Of a stretch of DNA of 35,678 nt, positions 1-25,771 are shown piece after piece. Source of the stretch: an uncultured Flavobacteriales bacterium (GTDB lineage: Bacteria > Bacteroidota > Bacteroidia > Flavobacteriales_D > Crocinitomicaceae); contig CAJAVU010000049.1 of assembly GCA_903945495.1 (NCBI GenBank), positions 1 through 35,678 of the forward strand, given 5' to 3'. The position numbers and the translations under genes are program-made. The stretch's first letter is position 1. Each line of letters begins with the position of its first letter. A model generated the notes under the pieces. That model was not told where the DNA came from, did no database searches, and was given only the letters and a program-made list of their open reading frames with translations.

Positions 1-687
1 ATCATAAAAACGAATGTTTTTTCAAACACCTTTGATCATCAAGAAAAAGTTGAAACATTGAGTAGGAGTGAACGAAAAATGCACAATAAGGAACAGCAAG
101 AGCAAAATGCTTTTTATGAAGACATCATTGATTATTTGAAACCGTATTCAGAAGTTTTAGTTTTTGGTCCAACAGATGCCAAATTAGAATTATTGAATTT
201 AATAAAAGCAAATTTGGCGTTTTCAACCATTAAAATCGCTGTAAAGAATAGTGATAAAATGACAGACGCGCAGGAGCATGCTTTTGTGAAAGATTATTTC
301 ACTGAAAAAAACAAATCAGACTACAAAAATTATATCATGGACGATAATAGAGAAATTGAAAAAGCAAAAGCACACATTGTTGTTGCTTTAATTGAATATA
401 TCCCAAATGCAGTTGTTTCGAAAACAATCATCAAGAAAACGACAGGAAACATAACTGCTACATCGTTTGATATTGGTGAAGAACTGGGAGATAAAATTTC
501 ACCGTTTGACACGTACGTTCAAATTATTGATGGAACAGCGGAAGTAGTAATTAACGACAGACAGCTACAATTGCGTTTAGGAGAAGGAATTATAATTCCA
601 GCGCATGCCAAGCACAGTTTTAATGCAAACGAACAATTCAAAATGCTAACAACTGTTATTAAGAGCGGTTACGAAGACTTAAATTAA
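1..687 (+). CDS. eRF1-domain-like protein fused to a C-terminal cupin (5' end cut by window)
   Basis: The reading frame is open from base 1, so the true start is probably upstream of the window. An ATG at 79 with AGGAG at 64-68 is the best start if the gene begins inside. The first half (…EVLVFGPTDAKLELL…MTDAQEHAFVKDYF) resembles the C-terminal part of the small eRF1-domain-3-like proteins common in Bacteroidota. The residues encoded before the ATG (FDHQEKVETLSRSERK) fit that family too, which favours the upstream start. The second half (VSKTIIKKTTGNITATSFDIGE, then a beta-rich segment with GTAEVVINDR and GEGIIIPAHAKHSF) is a single cupin barrel. The two parts are joined without a stop. Its function is unknown; such genes often sit with stress or carbohydrate genes, as here. 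The cupin call is firm, the N-terminal family moderately so. Confidence 0.72.
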   Translation: MIKTNVFSNTFDHQEKVETLSRSERKMHNKEQQEQNAFYEDIIDYLKPYSEVLVFGPTDAKLELLNLIKANLAFSTIKIAVKNSDKMTDAQEHAFVKDYFTEKNKSDYKNYIMDDNREIEKAKAHIVVALIEYIPNAVVSKTIIKKTTGNITATSFDIGEELGDKISPFDTYVQIIDGTAEVVINDRQLQLRLGEGIIIPAHAKHSFNANEQFKMLTTVIKSGYEDLN

Positions 688-14410: not shown

Positions 14411-14483
14411 GATTCCGTAGCTCAGCTGGTAGAGCAATACACTTTTAATGTATGGGCCCTGGGTTCGAATCCCAGCGGGATCA
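14411..14483 (+). tRNA. tRNA-Lys (anticodon TTT)
   Basis: A complete cloverleaf is visible. The acceptor GATTCCG pairs with CGGGATC (one G-T pair), discriminator A. The D arm is GTAGCTCAGCTGGTAGAGCA. The anticodon stem ATACA/TGTAT holds the loop CTTTTAA with anticodon TTT. The T arm is CTGGG-TTCGAAT-CCCAG. CCA is not encoded, as usual in this phylum. Its 3' end is a likely integration target for the element that follows. Confidence 0.97.
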
Positions 14484-14783: not shown

Positions 14784-16037
14784 ATGAAACAAAATCAAAA
14801 ATTGAATGTGCGAATTCGTATCAACGAACAACGCATGAAAGAAGGGAAAGCGCAAATTTTCATCCGCATTTTTGTTGATGGATTGAAGACTGAAATCGGC
14901 ACCACTCATTGTGTGAAAACAACTCAGTGGGATCCCAAAATTTCACGAGTAAGGCAAACTGCAGAGAATGCCCAATTGATCAATGCCTATCTCGATCGAG
15001 CAAAGAATTCCATCATTCAAGATTTCCTTGAACGCCAGGCACGAGGTATTGTATGTACTCCAAACGATCTCAAAAACAAGTTTCTCGGGATCAAGGAGAA
15101 TGCAAACGTTAAAACCATCCTTGAAGCATTTGACTATCACAATCTCAAAATGGGAGAAATGGTTAAGATTGGTAAAGTTGTAGCCAAAACATTAGCACGT
15201 TACAAGATTACCAAGAACAAAGTGGAAGCTTTCATGAAGTACCATTACAAAATTGCGGATAAACCACTTCCGGAGATGCGTCTGATGTTCGTTACCGAAT
15301 TCGAACATTATTTGCTCACAGTCGATAATTTACAATCCAATACGGCGTACAAGTACATCAAGAACCTAAAGAAAATTGTCACAATGTCCGTTGGGTTAGA
15401 TTGGATTCCATCCAACCCTTTTGCCAATTTCAGATGCTCTTACACGAGTCCAGACCGTGATATTCTTACACAAGAGGATCTTGACAACATCATGAACAAA
15501 GAATTCAATATTGAACGACTCAAAGAGGTACGCGATGTATTCGTTTTTTGTTGCTACACTGGTTTTGCTTATGCGGATGTGTTTAAATTCAATCAGAACG
15601 CCGTTATGATAGGTTTAGATGGGAATTACTGGCTTTCTACCAATCGTCAGAAAACAGGAACGAAAGAAAAAGTTCCTTTGCTTCCAATTGCATTGGAAAT
15701 CATTGAGCGGTACAAGAACCATCCCTATTGTGTGGAGCAAAACAAATTACTTCCAGTGAACAGCAATCAGCGGTATAATTCTTACCTGAAGGAGCTCGCA
15801 GATGCTTGTAACATCAACAAACATTTGACTACACATATTGCTCGACATACCTTTGCTACAACTGTAACTTTGGCGAATGGTGTTCCGATTGAAACGGTAA
15901 GTGCAATGCTTGGCCATACCAATATTCGAACTACTCAGATTTATGCAAAGGTGGTTGAAAAGAAGATGAGCGAAGACATGGAAATTCTAAAATCTAAGCT
16001 CTTTGCCGTCGGTAAAAAGGATAAGAAAGTTGGATAA
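14784..16037 (+). CDS. Tyrosine recombinase/integrase (IntDOT-like)
   Basis: A 417-residue site-specific recombinase. The N-terminal arm-binding region (about 1-90) is followed by a SAM-like core-binding domain (about 105-215) and the catalytic domain. Visible active-site residues are K290 in STNRQKTGTKEK, H351 and R354 in HIARHTFATT, H378 in MLGHTN and Tyr387 in TTQIYAKVVEKK. The first Arg of the canonical set is missing: TGFAYAD at 259-265 replaces the usual TGLRxxD, as in CTnDOT-type integrases, where this residue is not Arg. It starts just after the arm-site region and is followed by a terminator. It probably moves the element inserted beside tRNA-Lys. RteC next door supports a CTnDOT-like mobile element. 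Confidence 0.93.
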   Translation: MKQNQKLNVRIRINEQRMKEGKAQIFIRIFVDGLKTEIGTTHCVKTTQWDPKISRVRQTAENAQLINAYLDRAKNSIIQDFLERQARGIVCTPNDLKNKFLGIKENANVKTILEAFDYHNLKMGEMVKIGKVVAKTLARYKITKNKVEAFMKYHYKIADKPLPEMRLMFVTEFEHYLLTVDNLQSNTAYKYIKNLKKIVTMSVGLDWIPSNPFANFRCSYTSPDRDILTQEDLDNIMNKEFNIERLKEVRDVFVFCCYTGFAYADVFKFNQNAVMIGLDGNYWLSTNRQKTGTKEKVPLLPIALEIIERYKNHPYCVEQNKLLPVNSNQRYNSYLKELADACNINKHLTTHIARHTFATTVTLANGVPIETVSAMLGHTNIRTTQIYAKVVEKKMSEDMEILKSKLFAVGKKDKKVG

Positions 16038-17128: not shown

Positions 17129-18526
17129 TTATCTTATCTCTCGTTTTGTAATCATATCTCGTAGAGTCTTTGGTTCGTGTCCTAAATATTCAAGATAATA
17201 TAAAACATCACGCATTTTTGAATCTGGTAACCAACGTTTCTCAGATGAAAGCTTAATAATTTCAATGCATTTCTGTTTTAATTCGTCTTTAACATTGTCA
17301 ACGATTAGAATAACGGATAAAACTAATTGCGTGATTTCTTCTTCAATTTCTCTATAGTTTAAAACAATATTCGCTATTACAGGAATAGCACTTTCTACCT
17401 TTAGATTTTTACTTAATAGATAGTAAGCAACAGTAAAAGGTGTTATATCATTATCAGTGCCTGCATAGAAGTCTTCTAAGGAAATTTTCTCAAATCTTTT
17501 TTCTTTTATGAAGTCATTTAATTCGTCAATAGAAGGTAACAAATTGTCTTCATATTCAGTCCATTCTTCATATAAATTGTCAAGTTCTAAAAACAGAGAA
17601 ATAGTCCTGCCAGAAAGAACCCTAAGCATTTCAAAAGAATATTCTCTGTTTCTAATTAACGGGAAGAAGGGAGGTACTGGGAAAATAACCCTATCCTGAT
17701 AAACTTGCCTACCATGTGCAACCGAGTTGCGATCTTTTACCAAGTCTGAAATGAAAGCTTTGAGACGATGCGTCAAAATGCCCTGTTCTTGAAACATGAA
17801 CATTATTTTGCTTGCCACAGGCTGTTCAGAGATGAAAATACTTTCAATGAGTTTGCTTTTGGAATTCTGTTCCGATTGGAGCGGATTGCCTTCTAAAAGA
17901 TAAATGTCTCTGAGTATACTCTCTGAGAATTGCTTAATTGATTGAGTAGCTAATTGCTTTTGTTTAGTATTGTATTTTGTTGAGAGCAGTTCAAGAATGT
18001 GAAAATGTGAAAGTAAAACCTCATCATCATGAATCATGTTTTCTTCACTTTCCTTTTCAAGGTATAGCGCTTTTCGATATCGATCTACCAGAGAATAGAA
18101 GAGCCTTTTTTCGTTTTCATTTTGAGATTGTGTAAAGGCAACAATTTTATTGAAGTCAGACAAGTAATTTGACTTATTAAATTTGAATTTATTTTGTTTC
18201 CCTCTTTTAATATCTCCTACCATTGTTGAATTATTATAAAACTCGAACGGGGTAAATAATTCTTGAGTTAAAAAAGTCAATATGCCTAAAATTATTAAAA
18301 GTCGGGGCCTTGCATATGCAGCACCGTCAAACACGGATTCAAAATCGTCAAGATGAATTTCAATGGTAATGCATAAATACTTTTTCCCTTTTTCTGATTT
18401 GTGATGTTTATCAATTAAACTTAAATCTGTCGCGGTAAAAACTCGCGAATTCAACAAGAAAACATCAATGTCCAAATCGATATCAATTTCTCTTATTGTC
18501 GTATACGTTGTTGGTTCTTTCTTCAT
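17129..18526 (-). CDS. Large protein with HEPN (Apea-like) RNase motif
   Basis: 465 aa, no signal peptide or membrane segment. Residues 266-271 in LVKDRNSVAHGRQVY give R-x4-H, the catalytic signature of HEPN ribonucleases; the surrounding helices (HRLKAFISDLVKDRN) fit an Apea-like HEPN domain. The N-terminal 130 residues form a mixed region with LSLIDKHHKSEKGKKYLCITIEI that I do not recognise. The C-terminal 150 residues are helical with repeat-like blocks (VIANIVLNYREIEEEITQLVLSV). HEPN proteins commonly act in toxin or anti-phage systems by cutting RNA. It is alone on this strand in the island, divergent from the HTH genes and sharing a palindrome-bearing spacer with them. A defence role is inferred. 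Confidence 0.72.
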   Translation of the reverse strand: MKKEPTTYTTIREIDIDLDIDVFLLNSRVFTATDLSLIDKHHKSEKGKKYLCITIEIHLDDFESVFDGAAYARPRLLIILGILTFLTQELFTPFEFYNNSTMVGDIKRGKQNKFKFNKSNYLSDFNKIVAFTQSQNENEKRLFYSLVDRYRKALYLEKESEENMIHDDEVLLSHFHILELLSTKYNTKQKQLATQSIKQFSESILRDIYLLEGNPLQSEQNSKSKLIESIFISEQPVASKIMFMFQEQGILTHRLKAFISDLVKDRNSVAHGRQVYQDRVIFPVPPFFPLIRNREYSFEMLRVLSGRTISLFLELDNLYEEWTEYEDNLLPSIDELNDFIKEKRFEKISLEDFYAGTDNDITPFTVAYYLLSKNLKVESAIPVIANIVLNYREIEEEITQLVLSVILIVDNVKDELKQKCIEIIKLSSEKRWLPDSKMRDVLYYLEYLGHEPKTLRDMITKREIR

Positions 18527-19605: not shown

Positions 19606-20328
19606 ATGAATGTCAATTACATAAAACACTTAGAAGCCGTAACTCTGAGAATGGCGGATGATACCCGACTAAATACTAGTCATGTAAGCATGTATTTGGC
19701 GCTATTTCTAATCTGGAATCACAACCGATTTCAGAACCCACTTTCCATCAATCGATCAGAAGTAATGAAGATTTCCAAAATCGGAGCTCGGGCAACATAC
19801 CACAAGTGTATCACCGAGCTCCACAAGTGGGATTATCTCAAATACATTCCTTCCCATAATCCCCTAAAAGGGAGTTTAGTTAACATGTTCATTTTTGATA
19901 CTAGTAGTGAACAAGTAGTGAGCCAACTACCAGTACAACTCGGTGGACAAGTAGTGAGCCAAGTACTAGGCCCTTCTATAAACAATATAAACAAAAAGAA
20001 ACATATAAACATTACAAACAAGGATAGGGTCGATTCAGAAATCGACCAGCCAACAAAATCGAAAAGAGAGATTTTTATTTCTCCTTCTTTGGAAGAAGCA
20101 ACATTGTTTTTTAAGGAAAAGAATAAATCAGATCTCGAAGCTGAAAAATTCTTCAATCATTATGAATCCAATGGTTGGCTTGTCGGCGGAAAATCAAAAA
20201 TGAAAAACTGGCAAGCTGCAGCGCGAAATTGGATGTTGAATTCAGAAAAATTTCAATCTCAGAAAAAACAACCAAGTCCAGGGAATCTAAATGTCAATCA
20301 GAATAAAGATTACTCAGTTCCACTGTGA
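19606..20328 (+). CDS. Replication-initiator-like protein of Bacteroidota mobile elements
   Basis: 240 aa. The N-terminal 110 residues (MNVNYIKHLEAVTLRMADDT, VSMYLALFLIWNHNRFQNPL, SEVMKISKIGARATYHKCIT) form a winged-helix-like unit resembling the N-terminal domains of DnaD/RepA-type proteins. The C-terminus (ATLFFKEKNKSDLEAEKFFNHYESNGWLVGGKSKMKNWQAAARNWM) resembles a DnaD-like C-terminal segment that contacts DNA. A low-complexity linker (NNINKKKHINITNKD) joins them. Placed just before a DnaC-like ATPase, it suggests a replication module allowing the excised element to replicate. This is inference from fold-like pattern and context. Confidence 0.7.
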   Translation: MNVNYIKHLEAVTLRMADDTRLNTSHVSMYLALFLIWNHNRFQNPLSINRSEVMKISKIGARATYHKCITELHKWDYLKYIPSHNPLKGSLVNMFIFDTSSEQVVSQLPVQLGGQVVSQVLGPSINNINKKKHINITNKDRVDSEIDQPTKSKREIFISPSLEEATLFFKEKNKSDLEAEKFFNHYESNGWLVGGKSKMKNWQAAARNWMLNSEKFQSQKKQPSPGNLNVNQNKDYSVPL

Positions 20329-20373: not shown

Positions 20374-21000
20374 ATGCTAGAAAAATGCTACACAATCGAA
20401 AATAACTACCGTATGTTTGATTTCAACATGTGTGTGCGATACCTCAATCACCTTGGCAAACAAAAGTACGGCCCTTCCTTTTTTATCAGAAAAGAAGATC
20501 TTCCAATCCTTCACAAACTCATTTCATATGCTATTGCTTCAGAAGAAAATTGCAAGAACCATGGATTAGATTTAAATAAAGGAATTCTATTAACGGGTCC
20601 TGTTGGTTGCGGTAAAACAACTTTAATCTCACTTCTACCGAATTTCATGTATGCCCATCAAAAATACCTGGTCAAAAACACACGTGATATCGCTTCTGAA
20701 TTCCACAAAGAAGGATTCGAAATCATTCATCGGTATGGACGCAGAGAAAAAGCTTTTTGCATTGATGATCTCGGTGTTGAACACAACATCAAACACTTCG
20801 GGAATGAATGTAATACTATTGGTGAAATTATGCTACAGCGGTATGAATTACAAGTAAGCCAAGGAATCATTACCTATGCTACAACTAACTTGAATGCAGA
20901 TGAATTGGAGGATATTTATGGGATTAGGGTGAGATCGAGGTTGCGGAGTATGTTTAATTTGATTTCGTTTCCGGAAGCAACTCCAGATAAAAGAAAGTAA
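20374..21000 (+). CDS. DnaC/IstB-like AAA+ ATPase
   Basis: 208 aa. Walker A GPVGCGKT is at residues 75-82 in GILLTGPVGCGKTTLISLLP; Walker B FCIDDLG lies at 128-134; the sensor-1 region is ITYATTNLNADELE and the Arg-rich VRSRLRSMFNLI matches the arginine-finger/sensor-2 end of DnaC-like proteins. Such ATPases load the replicative helicase. With the preceding initiator-like protein it makes a compact replication module of the mobile element. IstB of IS21 is the alternative, but no IstA lies nearby. Confidence 0.85.
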   Translation: MLEKCYTIENNYRMFDFNMCVRYLNHLGKQKYGPSFFIRKEDLPILHKLISYAIASEENCKNHGLDLNKGILLTGPVGCGKTTLISLLPNFMYAHQKYLVKNTRDIASEFHKEGFEIIHRYGRREKAFCIDDLGVEHNIKHFGNECNTIGEIMLQRYELQVSQGIITYATTNLNADELEDIYGIRVRSRLRSMFNLISFPEATPDKRK

Positions 21001-21037
21001 TTTGTATTTCTTAAGTCGCCGTCTGAAGAATTATTAT

Positions 21038-21131
21038 CGTATCACTTTCCGTATCTATACGCATCATTGCGTATCATTTTTATTTTTTTTATTCGAATCT
21101 TATTCGTATCATTGCGTATCAATACGTATCA
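21038..21131. repeat. Phased CGTATCA heptamer array upstream of fic
   Basis: CGTATCA or one-mismatch forms start at 21038, 21050 (CGTATCT), 21060 (CGCATCA), 21070, 21105, 21115 and 21125. Two blocks of three are spaced exactly 10 bases apart, about one helical turn, and the blocks are 35 bases apart. The array ends 6 bases before the fic ATG. The spacing fits a multi-site operator bound by a protein contacting one face of the DNA. The C-terminal winged helix of the Fic protein is a natural candidate. Iterons for replication are the alternative, given the initiator-like gene nearby. Confidence 0.65.
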
Positions 21132-21137
21132 AAATAT

Positions 21138-22607
21138 ATGAAACAATCAATTCACACTCTAACCTTAACTCTTGATTTTAAGTTACTAAACGATATTAGT
21201 GCAATAGATCGATTTGGTGGCGAATGGATCGCAATTGAAAAACGTGAAGGACAACAAACATTAAAAGAGTTAAAGTCAATTGCAACCGTACAAAGTACTG
21301 GGGCATCAACACGAATTGAAGGATCAAAATTATCGAACGATGAAGTAAAAATACTCATTGACAATCTCACTATTTCAAAGTTAGAAGAGCGAGATCAACA
21401 AGAAGTTGTTGGATATTTTCATGTGCTCGATATCATAACTGAATCATATCAAGATATTCCCATTACCGAAAATAGTCTGAAAAATCTCCATAATCAATTG
21501 ATGAAGTTTAGCGACAAAGATCAATGGCATAAGGGCGACTACAAGCAGAACTCAAACTCAGTAGAAGCAACCAATCCTGATGGAACCAAAACAATAATAT
21601 TCAATACAACTCCACCCGGAATTGAAACAGAAAATGCAATGCGAGCGTTAATCGAATGGTACAACAATGACCATGATACTCCTCCCTTATTAAAGGCAGC
21701 AGCTTTTGTTTATGAATTCTTGAGTATACACCCATTTCAAGATGGTAACGGTCGTCTAAGTCGTTTAATTGGAACACTATTATTACTTAAAAATGGCTAC
21801 AACTGGATTCAGTATGTAAGCTTCGAACATGAAATTGAACAAAGAAAGCCTGAATATTATCGAGTTTTAATGGAATGTCAACAAAAACGTCCTGGGGAAG
21901 AAATTCATCCTTGGATCTTATTTTTCGCATCCTCTTTGAGCAACATTCAAACTAAGTTAATGACCAAATTAGAAGGTCAGAAACGCGAGAATAAGTTATC
22001 GCCAAAAGAAAAAACAGTACTCGCATTTATTGAAAATAATCCTGGTTGTCAGTCAAGCCAGATAGCTGAAAAATTAAGCATTTCACTTCCAACGGTAAAA
22101 AGAATGTTAGCAGAATTGACCAACTCAAAATTCGTGATCCAACATGGTGCTGGTAAAGGAACGAATTACACAATTATGCAAGAGCTCAAAATCCAAAAAA
22201 ATGTGATTATAAAACTTACTATAGATGAACCTAAACAAGAGCGTTTGTTAACTCACAGAAGCCATTTTATTGAAATCAATAAAATTATGTTACGTCCTAC
22301 ATTTGAATGGAACGATCCAAATGTCTGGAGTAAAAAACTATATGAGGAAGGTTTGAAACTACATATTCAATGCATTAGTAAAAATGGAATTGTACGAAAA
22401 AATGAATACCGTCTTTCTTCATTTGTCACTCCTTTTAGCTATGACCCAATTTTCAATTTACAAGATTCAATCAGTATTCCTGGATCCTTTTCAGGGGGAG
22501 TACCTGCAGATAACGAATTTCCGATGAAAATAATAATTGAAATCGTTACGGAATCATGGGATTCAGAATTCAACGTAGATTTAGTGATAGATGCAGGTTT
22601 AGAATAA
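21138..22607 (+). CDS. Fic family protein with winged-helix and unknown C-terminal domain
   Basis: 489 aa. Fic enzymes attach AMP (or another nucleotide moiety) to target proteins. The active site HPFQDGNGRLSR at 198-209 is intact, with His198. The inhibitory motif S-x3-E-G is STRIEG at 57-62, the class II arrangement with the inhibitory helix before the Fic core. Residues of about 287-345 (LSPKEKTVLAFIENNPGCQSSQIAEKLSI...) form a winged helix. Residues 350-489 carry an extra beta-rich domain I do not recognise. Upstream lies the CGTATCA array. Targets are unknown. In the island it sits directly before the restriction enzyme, consistent with a defence or regulatory cluster. Confidence 0.92.
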   Translation: MKQSIHTLTLTLDFKLLNDISAIDRFGGEWIAIEKREGQQTLKELKSIATVQSTGASTRIEGSKLSNDEVKILIDNLTISKLEERDQQEVVGYFHVLDIITESYQDIPITENSLKNLHNQLMKFSDKDQWHKGDYKQNSNSVEATNPDGTKTIIFNTTPPGIETENAMRALIEWYNNDHDTPPLLKAAAFVYEFLSIHPFQDGNGRLSRLIGTLLLLKNGYNWIQYVSFEHEIEQRKPEYYRVLMECQQKRPGEEIHPWILFFASSLSNIQTKLMTKLEGQKRENKLSPKEKTVLAFIENNPGCQSSQIAEKLSISLPTVKRMLAELTNSKFVIQHGAGKGTNYTIMQELKIQKNVIIKLTIDEPKQERLLTHRSHFIEINKIMLRPTFEWNDPNVWSKKLYEEGLKLHIQCISKNGIVRKNEYRLSSFVTPFSYDPIFNLQDSISIPGSFSGGVPADNEFPMKIIIEIVTESWDSEFNVDLVIDAGLE

Positions 22608-22654: not shown

Positions 22655-23752
22655 ATGAACACACAGCAATACATCGATAATCTCAATAAACGATTTCAAA
22701 CTGGAATTTCAAGAGAACACGCATATCGCGGCGATCTTCAGTTAGTTTTGGAAACATTGTTGAAGGATGTTCAGGTGATCAATGAACCAGCACGAATTGA
22801 ATGTGGAGCTCCCGATTACATTTTGACCAGAAAGGATATTCCTGTAGGTTATATCGAAGCAAAAGATGTAGGAGTTGATTTGAACAGCAAATCTTTAAAA
22901 GAACAATTCGATCGATATAGAGCTTCTTTAACTAATTTGATTTTTACGGATTACTTAGATTTCCATTTCTACCGCGATGGAGTGTTTGTAAATTCCATTC
23001 GTATTGCTGAAATTTCAAATGGAGTTATTGTTGGAAAGCCTGATCAGTATGCACACTTTGAGCAATTGATGAAGGATTTCGCGCAAACGATTTCGCAAAC
23101 GATCAAGTCACCAACGAAGTTGGCCGAAATGATGGCAGGGAAAGCACGTTTATTAGCTAATATCATTGAACAAGCGGTTTCTTCTGATGAAGAAAATGAA
23201 GCAAACTCACAATTAAAGGACCAATACAAAGCTTTTCAGAACGTTTTAGTGCATGACATTACCCACAAGGCATTTGCGGATATGTATGCACAGACAATTG
23301 CCTATGGTATGTTTGCTGCACGCTATCATGATCCAACAATTCCAACTTTCTCCAGAGAGGAAGCATCAACATTAATTCCACACTCTAATCCATTTTTAAG
23401 AAAGTTATTTCAAACAATTGCCGGGTATGATTTAGATGCGCGTATTGCTTGGATAGTGGATGATTTAGTTCAGATTTTCTTAGCTTCTGATGTGGCTGTG
23501 ATTATGCGCAACTTCGGAAAAAGCACCAAACAAGATGATCCGATTATTCACTTCTACGAAACGTTCTTAGCTGCCTATGATCCTTCGTTGAGAAAATCGA
23601 GAGGTGTTTGGTACACTCCGGAACCGGTTGTGAATTTCATCGTTCGTGCAGTGGATGATATTCTGAAATCTGAATTCAACTTACCGCAAGGATTAGCGGA
23701 TACATCAAAGACAAAAATCAAAGTAGATTACCAGGGCAAAAAGATTGAATAA
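22655..23752 (+). CDS. Nuclease-methyltransferase restriction enzyme, N-terminal fragment (stopped by in-frame TAA)
   Basis: 365 aa. Residues of about 25-110 form a PD-(D/E)xK nuclease: D54 in GAPDYIL and E68-x-K70 in YIEAKD, followed by EQFDRYR. The middle (AGKARLLANIIEQAV..., FQTIAGYDLDARIAWIVDDLVQIFLA) is the helical linker. WYTPEPVVNFIVRAVDDILKSEFNLP begins the N6-adenine methyltransferase region. The frame then meets TAA at 23750-23752, after KVDYQGKKIE, and continues open in the same frame. A change of AAA to TAA would explain this. The whole resembles type ISP/type IIG restriction-modification proteins of about 1040 aa, without a helicase. It starts at a normal ATG 47 bases after fic. 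Confidence 0.88.
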   Translation: MNTQQYIDNLNKRFQTGISREHAYRGDLQLVLETLLKDVQVINEPARIECGAPDYILTRKDIPVGYIEAKDVGVDLNSKSLKEQFDRYRASLTNLIFTDYLDFHFYRDGVFVNSIRIAEISNGVIVGKPDQYAHFEQLMKDFAQTISQTIKSPTKLAEMMAGKARLLANIIEQAVSSDEENEANSQLKDQYKAFQNVLVHDITHKAFADMYAQTIAYGMFAARYHDPTIPTFSREEASTLIPHSNPFLRKLFQTIAGYDLDARIAWIVDDLVQIFLASDVAVIMRNFGKSTKQDDPIIHFYETFLAAYDPSLRKSRGVWYTPEPVVNFIVRAVDDILKSEFNLPQGLADTSKTKIKVDYQGKKIE

Positions 23753-23764
23753 GAAGTACACAAG

Positions 23765-25771
23765 GTGCAAGTCTTAGATCCTGCAACAGGTACCGGAACT
23801 TTCCTTGCTGAAGTAATCAAACACATTCATCAAAAATTCAAGAACCAAGCAGGTATCTGGCCAAAGTATGTGGAGAATGATTTGATTCCACGCTTGAACG
23901 GTTTTGAGCTTTTAATGACTTCCTATGCTATGGCTCATTTGAAGATGGATATTTTGCTGACTGAAACTGGTTTTACCAATCCGAATAATAAACGTTTCAA
24001 GATCTTTCTTACCAACAGTTTAGAAGAGCCACACGATAACCAATTCAACTTATTTACACAGTGGTTATCACAAGAAGCAAATGAAGCCAATGCGATTAAG
24101 AAAGATGCACCGGTGATGTGTGTTATTGGGAATCCACCTTATTCTGTTAGCTCAACAAATAAAGGTCCTTGGATTCAAAATCTGATCGCTGATTATAAAA
24201 AAGATTTGAATGAGCGTAAAATCAACCTAGATGATGACTACATCAAATTCATTCGTTATGGTCAGCATTTTATTGATAAGAATGGAGAAGGTGTTTTGGC
24301 TTATATTTCTGCGAACAGTTTTCTTGATGGTCTTACTCATAGACAAATGCGAAAACATTTACTAGAAAGTTTCGACAAAATATACATTATAGATTTACAT
24401 GGTAATTCAAAGAAAAAAGAAATTTGTCCTGATGGGAGCCCTGATCAAAATGTATTTGACATTATGACTGGAGTTTCTATAAATATTTTTATAAAAACAA
24501 GCAAAAAGAAACAAAAAGAATTAGGACAAGTTTTTCATTTTGATTTATTTGGGAAACGTGATTATAAATATTCTTTTTTAAATCAAAATTCGATTAATAT
24601 TGAATGGAATGAATTAAAAATTTGTGAGCCATATTATTTTTTTGTTCCAAAGAATTTTGATTCAAAGAAAGACTACGAATCAGGTTTTAAAATTGATGGT
24701 TTAATGAAGAATGTTTCAGGAATTGAAACAAAACGAGACCATTTTGCGATTGATTTAGAATTGTCAAAATTAACAAATAGGATTTCTGACTTTATTGAAA
24801 ATGACTATACCCCTGAGGAAAGAAAAAGAAAATTTGATTTGAGGGACAATGAATGGATAGTTGAAGATGCGGTTAAAATTTTAAGAAATGACTCATCTTG
24901 GAAACATTCTTTTGTACCTTGTCTAACAAGACCATTTGACACAAGATCCATTATTTATAATGGAACAATTCTTTCCAGAGATCGGGGATTATTAATGGCT
25001 GGGATGAACTATGATAATTATGGTTTGGTCCTAGGGAGACAAAGTAAAGAAGACTTTGCTGCACTTATAACAAATTCTGTTTGTACGCATAAAATTGTAA
25101 CAGTTTACGATAGAAGTTTTATTTTTCCATTATACATTTATTCTGAGAATGGTAATCAAGAATCAATTGATGATGTTAGAAGAACACCAAACCTTGATTA
25201 CAAAATTGTAAAGCAAATAGCCAAAGGAATAAACCATTCATTCGTTCCAGATGAAGACATTTTAGTTGACCTTCCACCAAATTCATTAGGGGTATTTTAT
25301 CCTTTAGATGTTATGGACTACATATACGCAGTTCTTCATAGTCCAAGTTACCGCGAGAAATACAAAGAGTTTTTAAAGATCGATTTCCCAAGAGTTCCTT
25401 ACCCAACTGATGCAGATAAATTCTGGAAATTGGTTGCTTTGGGCAAAGAGCTCCGAGAGATCCATTTATTGGAAAGTCCAAAAGTGGAAGAATATATTAC
25501 CGGTTACCCGGAAGATGGAGACAACATCGTTGGCAAACCAACTTACAAAAACGGATCAGTCTACATCAACGAAACACAATACTTCTCAAACGTTCCGGAA
25601 GTAGCTTGGAATTTCTATATCGGTGGTTACCAACCCGCTCAAAAATGGCTCAAAGACCGCAAGGATCGTGAATTGAGCTACGATGATATTTTGCATTATC
25701 AGAAGATTATTGTGGCATTGAGTGAGACCGATAGAATAATGAAGGAGATTGATGAGGTTGGAACATTATAA
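23765..25771 (+). CDS. Nuclease-methyltransferase restriction enzyme, C-terminal fragment
   Basis: 668 aa in the same frame as the preceding fragment, so probably the rest of one gene. The putative GTG start only marks where the frame resumes. The SAM motif LDPATGTGTFLAEVIKHI is at residues 4-21, and the catalytic motif NPPY is in VIGNPPYSVSS at about 122-132, both intact. The C-terminal region (FVPCLTRPFDTRSIIYNG, VLGRQSKEDFAALITNSV, GNFYIGGYQPAQKWLKDRKD-like block) corresponds to the target-recognition part of type ISP/IIG enzymes. Without readthrough the fragment would be an isolated methyltransferase lacking the nuclease, so the restriction activity would be lost while methylation might remain. 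Followed 12 bases later by a hypothetical gene. Confidence 0.87.
   Translation: MQVLDPATGTGTFLAEVIKHIHQKFKNQAGIWPKYVENDLIPRLNGFELLMTSYAMAHLKMDILLTETGFTNPNNKRFKIFLTNSLEEPHDNQFNLFTQWLSQEANEANAIKKDAPVMCVIGNPPYSVSSTNKGPWIQNLIADYKKDLNERKINLDDDYIKFIRYGQHFIDKNGEGVLAYISANSFLDGLTHRQMRKHLLESFDKIYIIDLHGNSKKKEICPDGSPDQNVFDIMTGVSINIFIKTSKKKQKELGQVFHFDLFGKRDYKYSFLNQNSINIEWNELKICEPYYFFVPKNFDSKKDYESGFKIDGLMKNVSGIETKRDHFAIDLELSKLTNRISDFIENDYTPEERKRKFDLRDNEWIVEDAVKILRNDSSWKHSFVPCLTRPFDTRSIIYNGTILSRDRGLLMAGMNYDNYGLVLGRQSKEDFAALITNSVCTHKIVTVYDRSFIFPLYIYSENGNQESIDDVRRTPNLDYKIVKQIAKGINHSFVPDEDILVDLPPNSLGVFYPLDVMDYIYAVLHSPSYREKYKEFLKIDFPRVPYPTDADKFWKLVALGKELREIHLLESPKVEEYITGYPEDGDNIVGKPTYKNGSVYINETQYFSNVPEVAWNFYIGGYQPAQKWLKDRKDRELSYDDILHYQKIIVALSETDRIMKEIDEVGTL

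What the first reader, a model, noticed from the sequence alone, without database searches (positions are those of the whole stretch)
21038..21131. Helically phased CGTATCA array directly upstream of fic
Seven heptamers, six in two triplets at exact 10-base steps and 35 bases between triplets, end 6 bases before the fic ATG. Such strict phasing implies cooperative binding on one DNA face and is not explained by any gene. The Fic protein's own winged helix suggests autoregulation; iterons are an alternative.
Basis: seen in the sequence. Interest (0 to 1): 0.65.

Follow-up and report, generated by a model that had tools for sequence, protein, structure and literature searches.

The report
Fic toxin gene's own control array
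A row of short, evenly spaced repeats in front of a Fic toxin gene is most likely the landing strip where the Fic protein itself binds to shut off its own gene, and relatives in several bacterial phyla carry the same layout with a spelling that changes along with the protein's DNA-reading helix.

Summary
The array is real: five exact CGTATCA and two one-mismatch copies at the stated coordinates. An eighth, degraded copy (21094) makes two units with steps of 11-12, 10, 10 bp, offset by 55-56 bp. It is not an iteron of the neighbouring rep/dnaC genes. Upstream regions of Fic relatives chosen by protein similarity, not by the array, carry phased triplets in 72 of 95 cases at p<=0.05, against 16 of 360 control windows. 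The spelling drifts between clades (CGTATCA, CGGATA, TGGATA, TGGGTG, GGCTAA and others) while the 10-11 bp step stays. Of 367 nine-residue windows along Fic, those that best predict operator similarity after correction for relatedness are the recognition helix of Fic's own winged helix (ranks 1-6). In relatives the repeats overlap promoter-like elements. Best reading: Fic binds its own promoter as a head-to-tail row and represses it. Autorepression by a Fic-HTH protein is known (CccR, through an inverted repeat); a direct-repeat operator that co-varies with the protein across phyla, in proteins matching the Sofic anti-phage model, did not turn up in the literature searches made. No binding or expression was measured.

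The parts
21038..21076 (+). operator unit 1: heptamers at 21038, 21050, 21060, 21070 (steps 12, 10, 10)
   Evidence: same kind of layout in homologues
21094..21131 (+). operator unit 2: degraded site 21094 (CGAATCT), then CGTATCA at 21105, 21115, 21125 (steps 11, 10, 10); ends 6 bases before the fic ATG
   Evidence: unit offset of 54-55 bp recurs in homologues
21107..21114 (+). possible -7 promoter box TATCATTG, one mismatch from TAnnTTTG, inside the first site of the last triplet; no clear -33 TTG at the usual spacing was seen in the window by eye
   Evidence: sequence; CGTAnnTTTG occurs in 27 of 71 related promoters; consensus from passages of PMC9723704. Inference for the window
21138..22607 (+). 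fic: 489-aa Fic protein with class II inhibitory motif, Fic motif, winged helix and an extra C-terminal beta-rich domain
21306..21323 (+). class II inhibitory motif STRIEG (residues 57-62); S57, R59, I60, E61 and G62 invariant in 41 aligned sequences
21729..21755 (+). catalytic Fic motif HPFQDGNGR (residues 198-206), invariant in 41 aligned sequences
22002..22175 (+). winged helix-turn-helix domain (residues 289-346)
22086..22124 (+). recognition helix (residues 317-329) whose sequence predicts the operator

Best explanation
The array is the operator of the fic gene, read by the winged helix of the Fic protein itself. Fic molecules sit side by side, head to tail, one per heptamer, about one helical turn apart, in units of three to four sites; two units lie 55 bp apart. 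Because the sites overlap the core promoter, bound Fic blocks RNA polymerase, so Fic represses its own synthesis and keeps a potentially toxic AMP-transferase at a low standing level. Shown here: the array, its conservation in layout but not in letters, its tie to fic, its overlap with promoter-like elements in relatives, and the covariation with Fic's recognition helix. Inferred: physical binding, cooperativity, the head-to-tail row, the direction of regulation (repression), and the purpose.
For: Phased triplets stand upstream of 72 of 95 Fic relatives not chosen for the array at p<=0.05 (49 at p<=0.01), against 16 and 1 of 360 control windows in the same loci. The step spectrum peaks at 10 bp; site distances peak at 10, 11, 20-21, 31, 45, 55 and 65 bp. 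A scan of the species-genome collection for the array alone gave 117 stretches, 63 of them with a fic start -60 to 150 bp after it on the same strand. Of ORFs that do not overlap fic or its upstream region, none is shared by more than 5 of 54 loci except one that is itself a second Fic protein. Recognition-helix windows rank 1-6 of 367 in predicting operator similarity after control for Fic-domain relatedness; the top window starts in residues 312-322 in 7 of 7 subsets and in 0 of 100 permutations. Helix KR goes with two or more GTATCA in 67 of 69 loci, KK in 1 of 27 (includes array-selected loci). TAnnTTTG lies within 80 bp of the ATG in 46 of 71 promoters (shuffles 4.5), 27 of them inside a heptamer (50 of the 71 array-selected). 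In 17 of 21 loci of one distant clade the repeats fill the spacer of a TTGnAn-N16/17-TATnnT promoter (shuffles 0.18; many of these loci are close relatives). Precedent: CccR, a Fic-HTH protein, represses its own promoter (PMC9755527 section 10).
Against: No binding, footprint or transcript data were found for this group. 23 of 95 relatives miss p<=0.05; by eye several still show arrays, but L254, L272, L294 and L298 do not. On a Fic-domain tree of 45 rows helix class changes 4 times and operator class 4 times, yet they do not coincide fully: of 3 independent pairs operator goes the same way in 1.9 on average, never the other way, and does not differ in 1.1; the sign test is not significant (median p 0.5). 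The window's own promoter is imperfect (TATCATTG). 45 of 117 array matches have no fic: 9 lie inside long ORFs; of 18 tested for relics 4 keep a fic 5' fragment and 14 show none; three of these (L108, L110, L142) lie about 200 bp past a gene that looks like mnmE.
Confidence: 0.82

Rival explanations
1. The array is an activator site: Fic (or Fic plus a partner) binds it and turns its own gene on, as a positive loop during stress or infection.
For: In 13 of 71 promoters the -7 box lies downstream of the last heptamer, and upstream sites are also compatible with activation.
Against: In 27 of 71 the -7 box is inside a heptamer and in 17 of 21 loci of a distant clade the sites fill the -35/-10 spacer, positions that favour occlusion. 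CccR, a measured Fic-HTH case, represses.
Confidence: 0.09
2. Another regulator, host or mobile, binds the array and controls fic.
For: Binding was not measured; arrays without fic exist.
Against: No other gene is shared by more than 5 of 54 loci, the array is unique in its genome at up to 3 mismatches, and the operator tracks Fic's own recognition helix better than any other stretch of Fic.
Confidence: 0.05
3. The repeats are iterons, the replication origin of the island, bound by the 19606-20328 protein next to a DnaC-like loader.
For: A gene that looks rep-like by position and a DnaC-like loader lie just upstream, and iterons are direct repeats (recalled).
Against: Rep homologues occur in 54 of 200 family genomes; of 29 loci with sequence after dnaC, 0 have a CGTATCA pair at 10-11 bp there and none shows fic in its 3.4-3.8 kb piece. 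Rep or dnaC occurs in 1 of 54 array-fic pieces.
Confidence: 0.02
4. The array is a neutral tandem repeat or a slippage hot spot.
For: Site number varies (3 to 13 per promoter) and some pattern hits are plain minisatellites (L098, L109, L174).
Against: Steps alternate 11, 10, 10 with differing spacers and a favoured 55-bp offset, and the sequence covaries with the protein.
Confidence: 0.02

Closest known systems
CccR of Yersinia pseudotuberculosis (Fic-HTH autorepressor; PMC9755527, passages and section 10 part 1 read)
   Same: Fic enzyme with C-terminal DNA-binding domain that binds and represses its own promoter near -35 and -10
   Different: Operator is one inverted repeat of 10-bp boxes with a 26-bp spacer, bound as a dimer; here the operator is direct repeats at 10-11 bp steps in units of three to four
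Sofic / SoFic anti-phage Fic (PADLOC SoFic model; EcSofic, PMC12249575 abstract, passages and discussion read)
   Same: The window Fic and 7 of 7 relatives tested match the PADLOC SoFic model over Fic domain and winged helix
   Different: Far below the NCBIfam SoFic equivalog cut-off (57.5 against 550 bits); the EcSofic paper discusses an antitoxin and a C-terminal domain, and the words HTH, DNA-binding and transcription are not in its main text
CbFic2 of Coxiella burnetii (PMC10628234, passages read; PDB 8cil)
   Same: Best fold match of the model; class II Fic with a winged helix that binds DNA; DNA shifts it to a deAMPylating dimer
   Different: Studied as a histone-modifying enzyme with short double-stranded DNA; no phased array in the passages read
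RdfS, an oligomeric wHTH protein that coats DNA (PMC11963761, abstract and outline read)
   Same: wHTH units that oligomerise and bind within their own promoter region
   Different: Recombination directionality factor; no sequence consensus reported in the abstract

Membership tests
Class II Fic AMP-transferase | HPFx[D/E]GN[G/K]R motif | tested here: met
   HPFQDGNGR residues 198-206, invariant in 41 sequences; Pfam Fic 68 bits, cut-off 24
Class II Fic AMP-transferase | N-terminal inhibitory motif [S/T]xxxE[G/N] (recalled) | tested here: met
   STRIEG residues 57-62; the model is weak here (residues 47-85 pLDDT under 50)
Class II Fic AMP-transferase | AMPylation activity | not testable with these tools
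   needs an enzyme assay
Self-repressing Fic-HTH protein (CccR-like) | C-terminal DNA-binding domain on the Fic protein | tested here: met
   HTH_24 and MarR_2 above cut-off; wHTH in the model
Self-repressing Fic-HTH protein (CccR-like) | operator overlapping its own promoter | tested here: inconclusive
   overlap with promoter-like boxes in relatives; weak in the window itself; no start site mapped
Self-repressing Fic-HTH protein (CccR-like) | inverted-repeat operator with long spacer | tested here: not met
   all sites in the window point the same way; no reverse copy with one mismatch or less in 20991-21160
Self-repressing Fic-HTH protein (CccR-like) | binding and repression | not testable with these tools
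   needs gel shift and reporter
Sofic anti-phage system | match to PADLOC SoFic model | tested here: met
   1e-48, residues 45-349
Sofic anti-phage system | NCBIfam SoFic equivalog cut-off | tested here: not met
   57.5 of 550 bits
Sofic anti-phage system | protection from phage | not testable with these tools
   needs an infection assay
Iteron replication origin | repeats conserved with the rep gene | tested here: not met
   0 of 29 rep loci

The most novel reading that the evidence does not exclude
The array is also an off-switch for the enzyme: a row of Fic held head to tail on its own promoter DNA is locked in an inactive or deAMPylating state, so the operator acts as a DNA antitoxin, and loss or remodelling of that DNA (phage attack on the chromosome, excision of the island) both de-represses fic and releases active toxin. 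The CbFic2 finding that DNA binding turns a class II Fic from AMPylation to deAMPylation is the only support; nothing here tests it.
Probability: 0.12. Interest if true: 0.88.

Novelty: new variant of a known kind. Interest (0 to 1): 0.66.

Why it matters
How Sofic-type Fic defence toxins are kept from harming their host is left partly open in the 2025 EcSofic paper, whose discussion says that leaky expression may be toxic and that auto-inhibition does not fully inhibit the enzyme. A promoter array read by the toxin itself gives a directly testable answer; phased arrays were found in front of relatives in Bacteroidota (including a distant clade within the phylum search), Pseudomonadota and Cyanobacteriota. 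The many natural pairs of recognition helix and operator spelling also form a ready dataset for a winged-helix DNA recognition code, and the direct-repeat layout predicts a head-to-tail oligomer that the Fic papers I read do not describe.

Tried and rejected
Iteron origin of the island: rejected on 29 rep loci and 54 fic loci. Rfam at gathering threshold: only a tRNA at 14411-14483. A copy of the tRNA 3' end as island edge was sought in the window and not found. Regulon in the own genome: no second array at up to 3 mismatches. Other genes under the array: a gene start MSNAIYKTQLLELYWEIAK at a contig end (L061 and L128, probably one contig seen twice) could not be identified; three copies near a gene that looks like mnmE have no fic. 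E. coli Sofic upstream region: not reached, two distant DNA searches gave no match. Two phage relatives (L298, L299) and a Lactobacillus relative (L294) show no direct-repeat array by eye; L299 seems to hold inverted TTCGCCTA/TAGGCGAA copies, seen by eye only.

Limits of the counts: the shuffles keep base composition only; those keep dinucleotides. include loci chosen by the array pattern (50 of 71 promoters). Searches use only loci with a clear triplet (70; 55 after removing close copies). Some genomes behind the pattern scan and behind the protein searches are the same. Plasmid and phage records were picked by hand from the listings for taxonomic spread; 17 plasmid loci and 1 phage locus entered, L299 did not. 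Left out: duplicates of an upstream region, L237 and L238 (contig-cut), L058 and L059 (weak or partial matches). The 21 loci come from 16 genomes, mostly one family (f91), and some are identical upstream. The protein searches score a capped number of candidates per genome.

Full report
WHAT IS THERE. A further degraded site, CGAATCT at 21094, turns the array into two four-site units with steps 12, 10, 10 and 11, 10, 10, offset by 55-56 bp. The triplet pattern with up to 3 mismatches has no match elsewhere in the 3.64-Mb genome. In 200 genomes of the same family it occurs in 15, with 1 match of the reversed control pattern; in 10 of the 15 it sits directly in front of a fic gene. A stricter five-letter form, CGTAT at 10-base steps without mismatch, occurs in 14 of 399 genomes of the order, reversed control 0; in 5 of them (G040, G060, G197, G340, G399) whole triplets recur at 54-55 bp.

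SURROUNDINGS. The window holds what looks like an integrated island: a tRNA, a tyrosine integrase at 14784, RteC, two HTH_17 proteins with weak excisionase matches, a 240-aa protein that I call rep by position, a DnaC-like loader, fic, and a type ISP/IIG restriction-methylase that appears split over two ORFs. The island's far edge was not found. The Fic protein has the Fic motif, the class II inhibitory motif, a winged helix and an extra beta-rich domain at the C terminus. It matches the PADLOC SoFic model at 1e-48, though not the NCBIfam SoFic equivalog (57.5 of 550 bits).

NOT AN ITERON. Rep homologues occur in 54 of 200 family genomes. Of 29 such loci with sequence after dnaC, 0 have two CGTATCA sites at 10-11 bp in the next 300 bases, and none shows fic in its piece. 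Conversely rep, dnaC and integrase each occur in 1 of 54 array-fic pieces of up to 8 kb, and RteC and the restriction ORFs in 0 of 54. Leaving aside ORFs that overlap fic or its upstream region, no ORF is shared by more than 5 of the 54 loci, except one in L140 that is itself a second Fic protein (which replaces a first count that contained antisense frames of fic).

THE ARRAY BELONGS TO FIC. A scan of the species-genome collection for the array pattern alone returned 117 stretches. 63 have a fic start -60 to 150 bp after the array on the same strand, 3 a partial or displaced fic, 6 end within 200 bp of the array, 45 have no fic. Of the 45, 9 lie inside ORFs of 150 codons or more; 18 were tested for relics, 4 keep a fic 5' fragment, 14 do not. 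The reverse test uses Fic relatives found by protein similarity: 20 of 200 family genomes, 35 of 345 class genomes, 25 of 395 phylum genomes, and hand-picked plasmid and phage records. In 95 distinct upstream regions a de novo test for three similar heptamers at 10-11 bp steps gives p<=0.05 in 72 and p<=0.01 in 49; control windows in the same loci give 16 and 1 of 360. By source the p<=0.05 counts are 14 of 19 (family), 25 of 31 (class), 22 of 27 (phylum) and 11 of 18 (plasmid/phage). An earlier run on 50 regions gave 38 at p<=0.05 and a step spectrum with its peak at 10 bp.

LAYOUT KEPT, LETTERS CHANGED. Two or more GTATCA stand in 10 of 19 family, 12 of 31 class, 3 of 27 phylum and 0 of 18 plasmid/phage regions. 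Others, read by eye, use CGGATA or CGTATA (L044-046, L221, L223, L233-236), CGAACCA (L219), TGGATA or GATA at 10-11 bp (L056, L239-246), GCTCA/GCCCA (L247). Further out are TGGGTG in a distant clade of the phylum search (family codes f91, f103) and in Beta-, Gamma- and Alphaproteobacteria, GGCTAA in Thiothrix, CGGGTA in Methylocystis and Devosia, TGGATA in Chroococcidiopsis. Distances between CGTATCA-type sites peak at 10 (204 pairs), 11 (43), 20-21, 31, 45, 55 (70) and 65 bp in 71 promoters, and the 21 of these not selected by the pattern show the same peaks.

WHO READS IT. If Fic reads the array, its recognition helix should change with the spelling. In 96 loci, helix residues KR (residues 321-322) go with two or more GTATCA in 67 of 69, KK in 1 of 27 (this set contains array-selected loci). 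For a test without CGTATCA-selected loci I took those with a clear triplet of any spelling (70; 55 after removing close copies) and compared operator similarity with the similarity of every nine-residue window of Fic, after removing the part explained by Fic-domain identity (residues 1-270). Of 367 windows the top six start at residues 315-320, the best being SLPTVKRML (partial r 0.50; for the window 318-326 r is 0.44 and 0 of 999 Mantel permutations reach it). The top window starts in residues 312-322 in 7 of 7 subsets (n 14 to 55), and in 0 of 100 runs with permuted operators, whose maximum r has a 95% point of 0.273 against 0.465 observed in the same set. An AlphaFold2 model (mean pLDDT 78.7, pTM 0.55) places the recognition helix at 317-329. 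On a tree of the Fic domain (45 rows) helix class and operator class each change 4 times. Of 3 independent pairs the operator goes the same way in 1.9 on average, never the other way, and does not differ in 1.1; this is too few for a sign test (median p 0.5).

WHERE IT SITS IN THE PROMOTER. TAnnTTTG, the -7 box of Bacteroidota sigma A (PMC9723704 passages), lies within 80 bp of the ATG in 46 of 71 promoters, against 4.5 in shuffles; in 27 it forms part of a heptamer (CGTAnnTTTG), in 13 it lies after the last one. TTG stands 19 bp upstream of that box in 20 of 80 loci, not deduplicated. In the TGGGTG clade 17 of 21 loci, from 16 genomes, have TTGnAn-N16/17-TATnnT whose spacer is filled by two repeats, and the -10 ends 6 bases before the ATG (shuffles 0.18). 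These positions favour repression by occlusion. In the window the corresponding box is TATCATTG, one mismatch off, without a clear -33.

MECHANISM. Most likely Fic molecules line up head to tail on the heptamers, one per turn, cover the promoter and hold fic expression low. The direction of control, the cooperativity and the oligomer are inferences. The sites within a unit share a face; the 55-bp offset is about 5.24 turns, so the two units face about a quarter turn apart.

AGAINST. 23 of 95 relatives miss p<=0.05. L254/L272 (one genome), L294 and L298 show no array by eye. Some arrays lack fic. The cross-clade helix test controls for relatedness statistically and not by independent events. 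No experiment supports binding. Three other Fic genes of the same genome include two whose upstream regions were read and show no such array (L283, L285); the third (L286) was not resolved.

KNOWN AND NEW. CccR represses its own promoter through AGATAATCAT-N26-ATGATAATCT (PMC9755527 section 10, part 1 read), so autorepression by a Fic-HTH protein is known. CbFic2 (PMC10628234, passages) suggests that DNA binding can switch a class II Fic to deAMPylation. The EcSofic paper (PMC12249575; abstract, passages, discussion) leaves regulation partly open, and the words HTH, DNA-binding and transcription do not occur in its main text. The listings showed no paper whose title or shown abstract describes a direct-repeat operator of a Fic gene; only open-licence papers are held, listings are capped, and I read few of the papers listed. 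I therefore call this a new variant of a known kind.

Noticed in passing
window 22655-23752 and 23765-25771 (+): A type ISP/IIG restriction-methylase appears split over two ORFs: a PADLOC IIG model (PDLC03610, length 1096) matches positions 2-346 in the first and its best stretch in the second is 545-1077.
   Followed up: no
L285 (G000 contig C105), another Fic gene of the same genome: A different Fic protein with a winged-helix-like end; by eye its upstream region holds inverted copies around TTTGGTACA/TGTACCAAA instead of direct repeats, a CccR-like layout in the same cell.
   Followed up: no
L131, L157, L102, L179: Arrays followed by only 36-45 residues matching the start of Fic; in L131 a long ORF that I read by eye as a DNA methyltransferase starts about 200 bp after the array. 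They look like decayed or replaced fic genes.
   Followed up: partly
L061 / L128 (probably one contig seen twice): A CGTATCA array directly in front of a start MSNAIYKTQLLELYWEIAKDVDSKLN that gave no Fic match; the contig ends there. DUF1016-like by recall only.
   Followed up: no
L108, L110 (Niastella), L142 (Ferruginibacter), L169 (Longitalea): Similar four-site CGTATCA-like arrays without fic; in L108, L110 and L142 the array lies about 200 bp past the end of a gene that I read as mnmE from its sequence (names).
   Followed up: partly
window 21138-22607, residues 353-487; also L040, L041, L042, L075, L086, L093, L116, L145, L150, L151, L160, L173, L185: A long form of Fic (486-495 aa) with an extra beta-rich C-terminal domain after the winged helix; many relatives stop at about residue 346.
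   Followed up: no
window 17129-18526 (-): A 465-aa protein between RteC and the HTH genes with no match in Pfam, PHROGs, NCBIfam or PADLOC at the thresholds used.
   Followed up: no
L287 (Paraburkholderia plasmid), about 15 bp upstream of the TGGGTG array: Inverted copies (CACACCCATTTACACCC) just upstream of the direct array.
   Followed up: no
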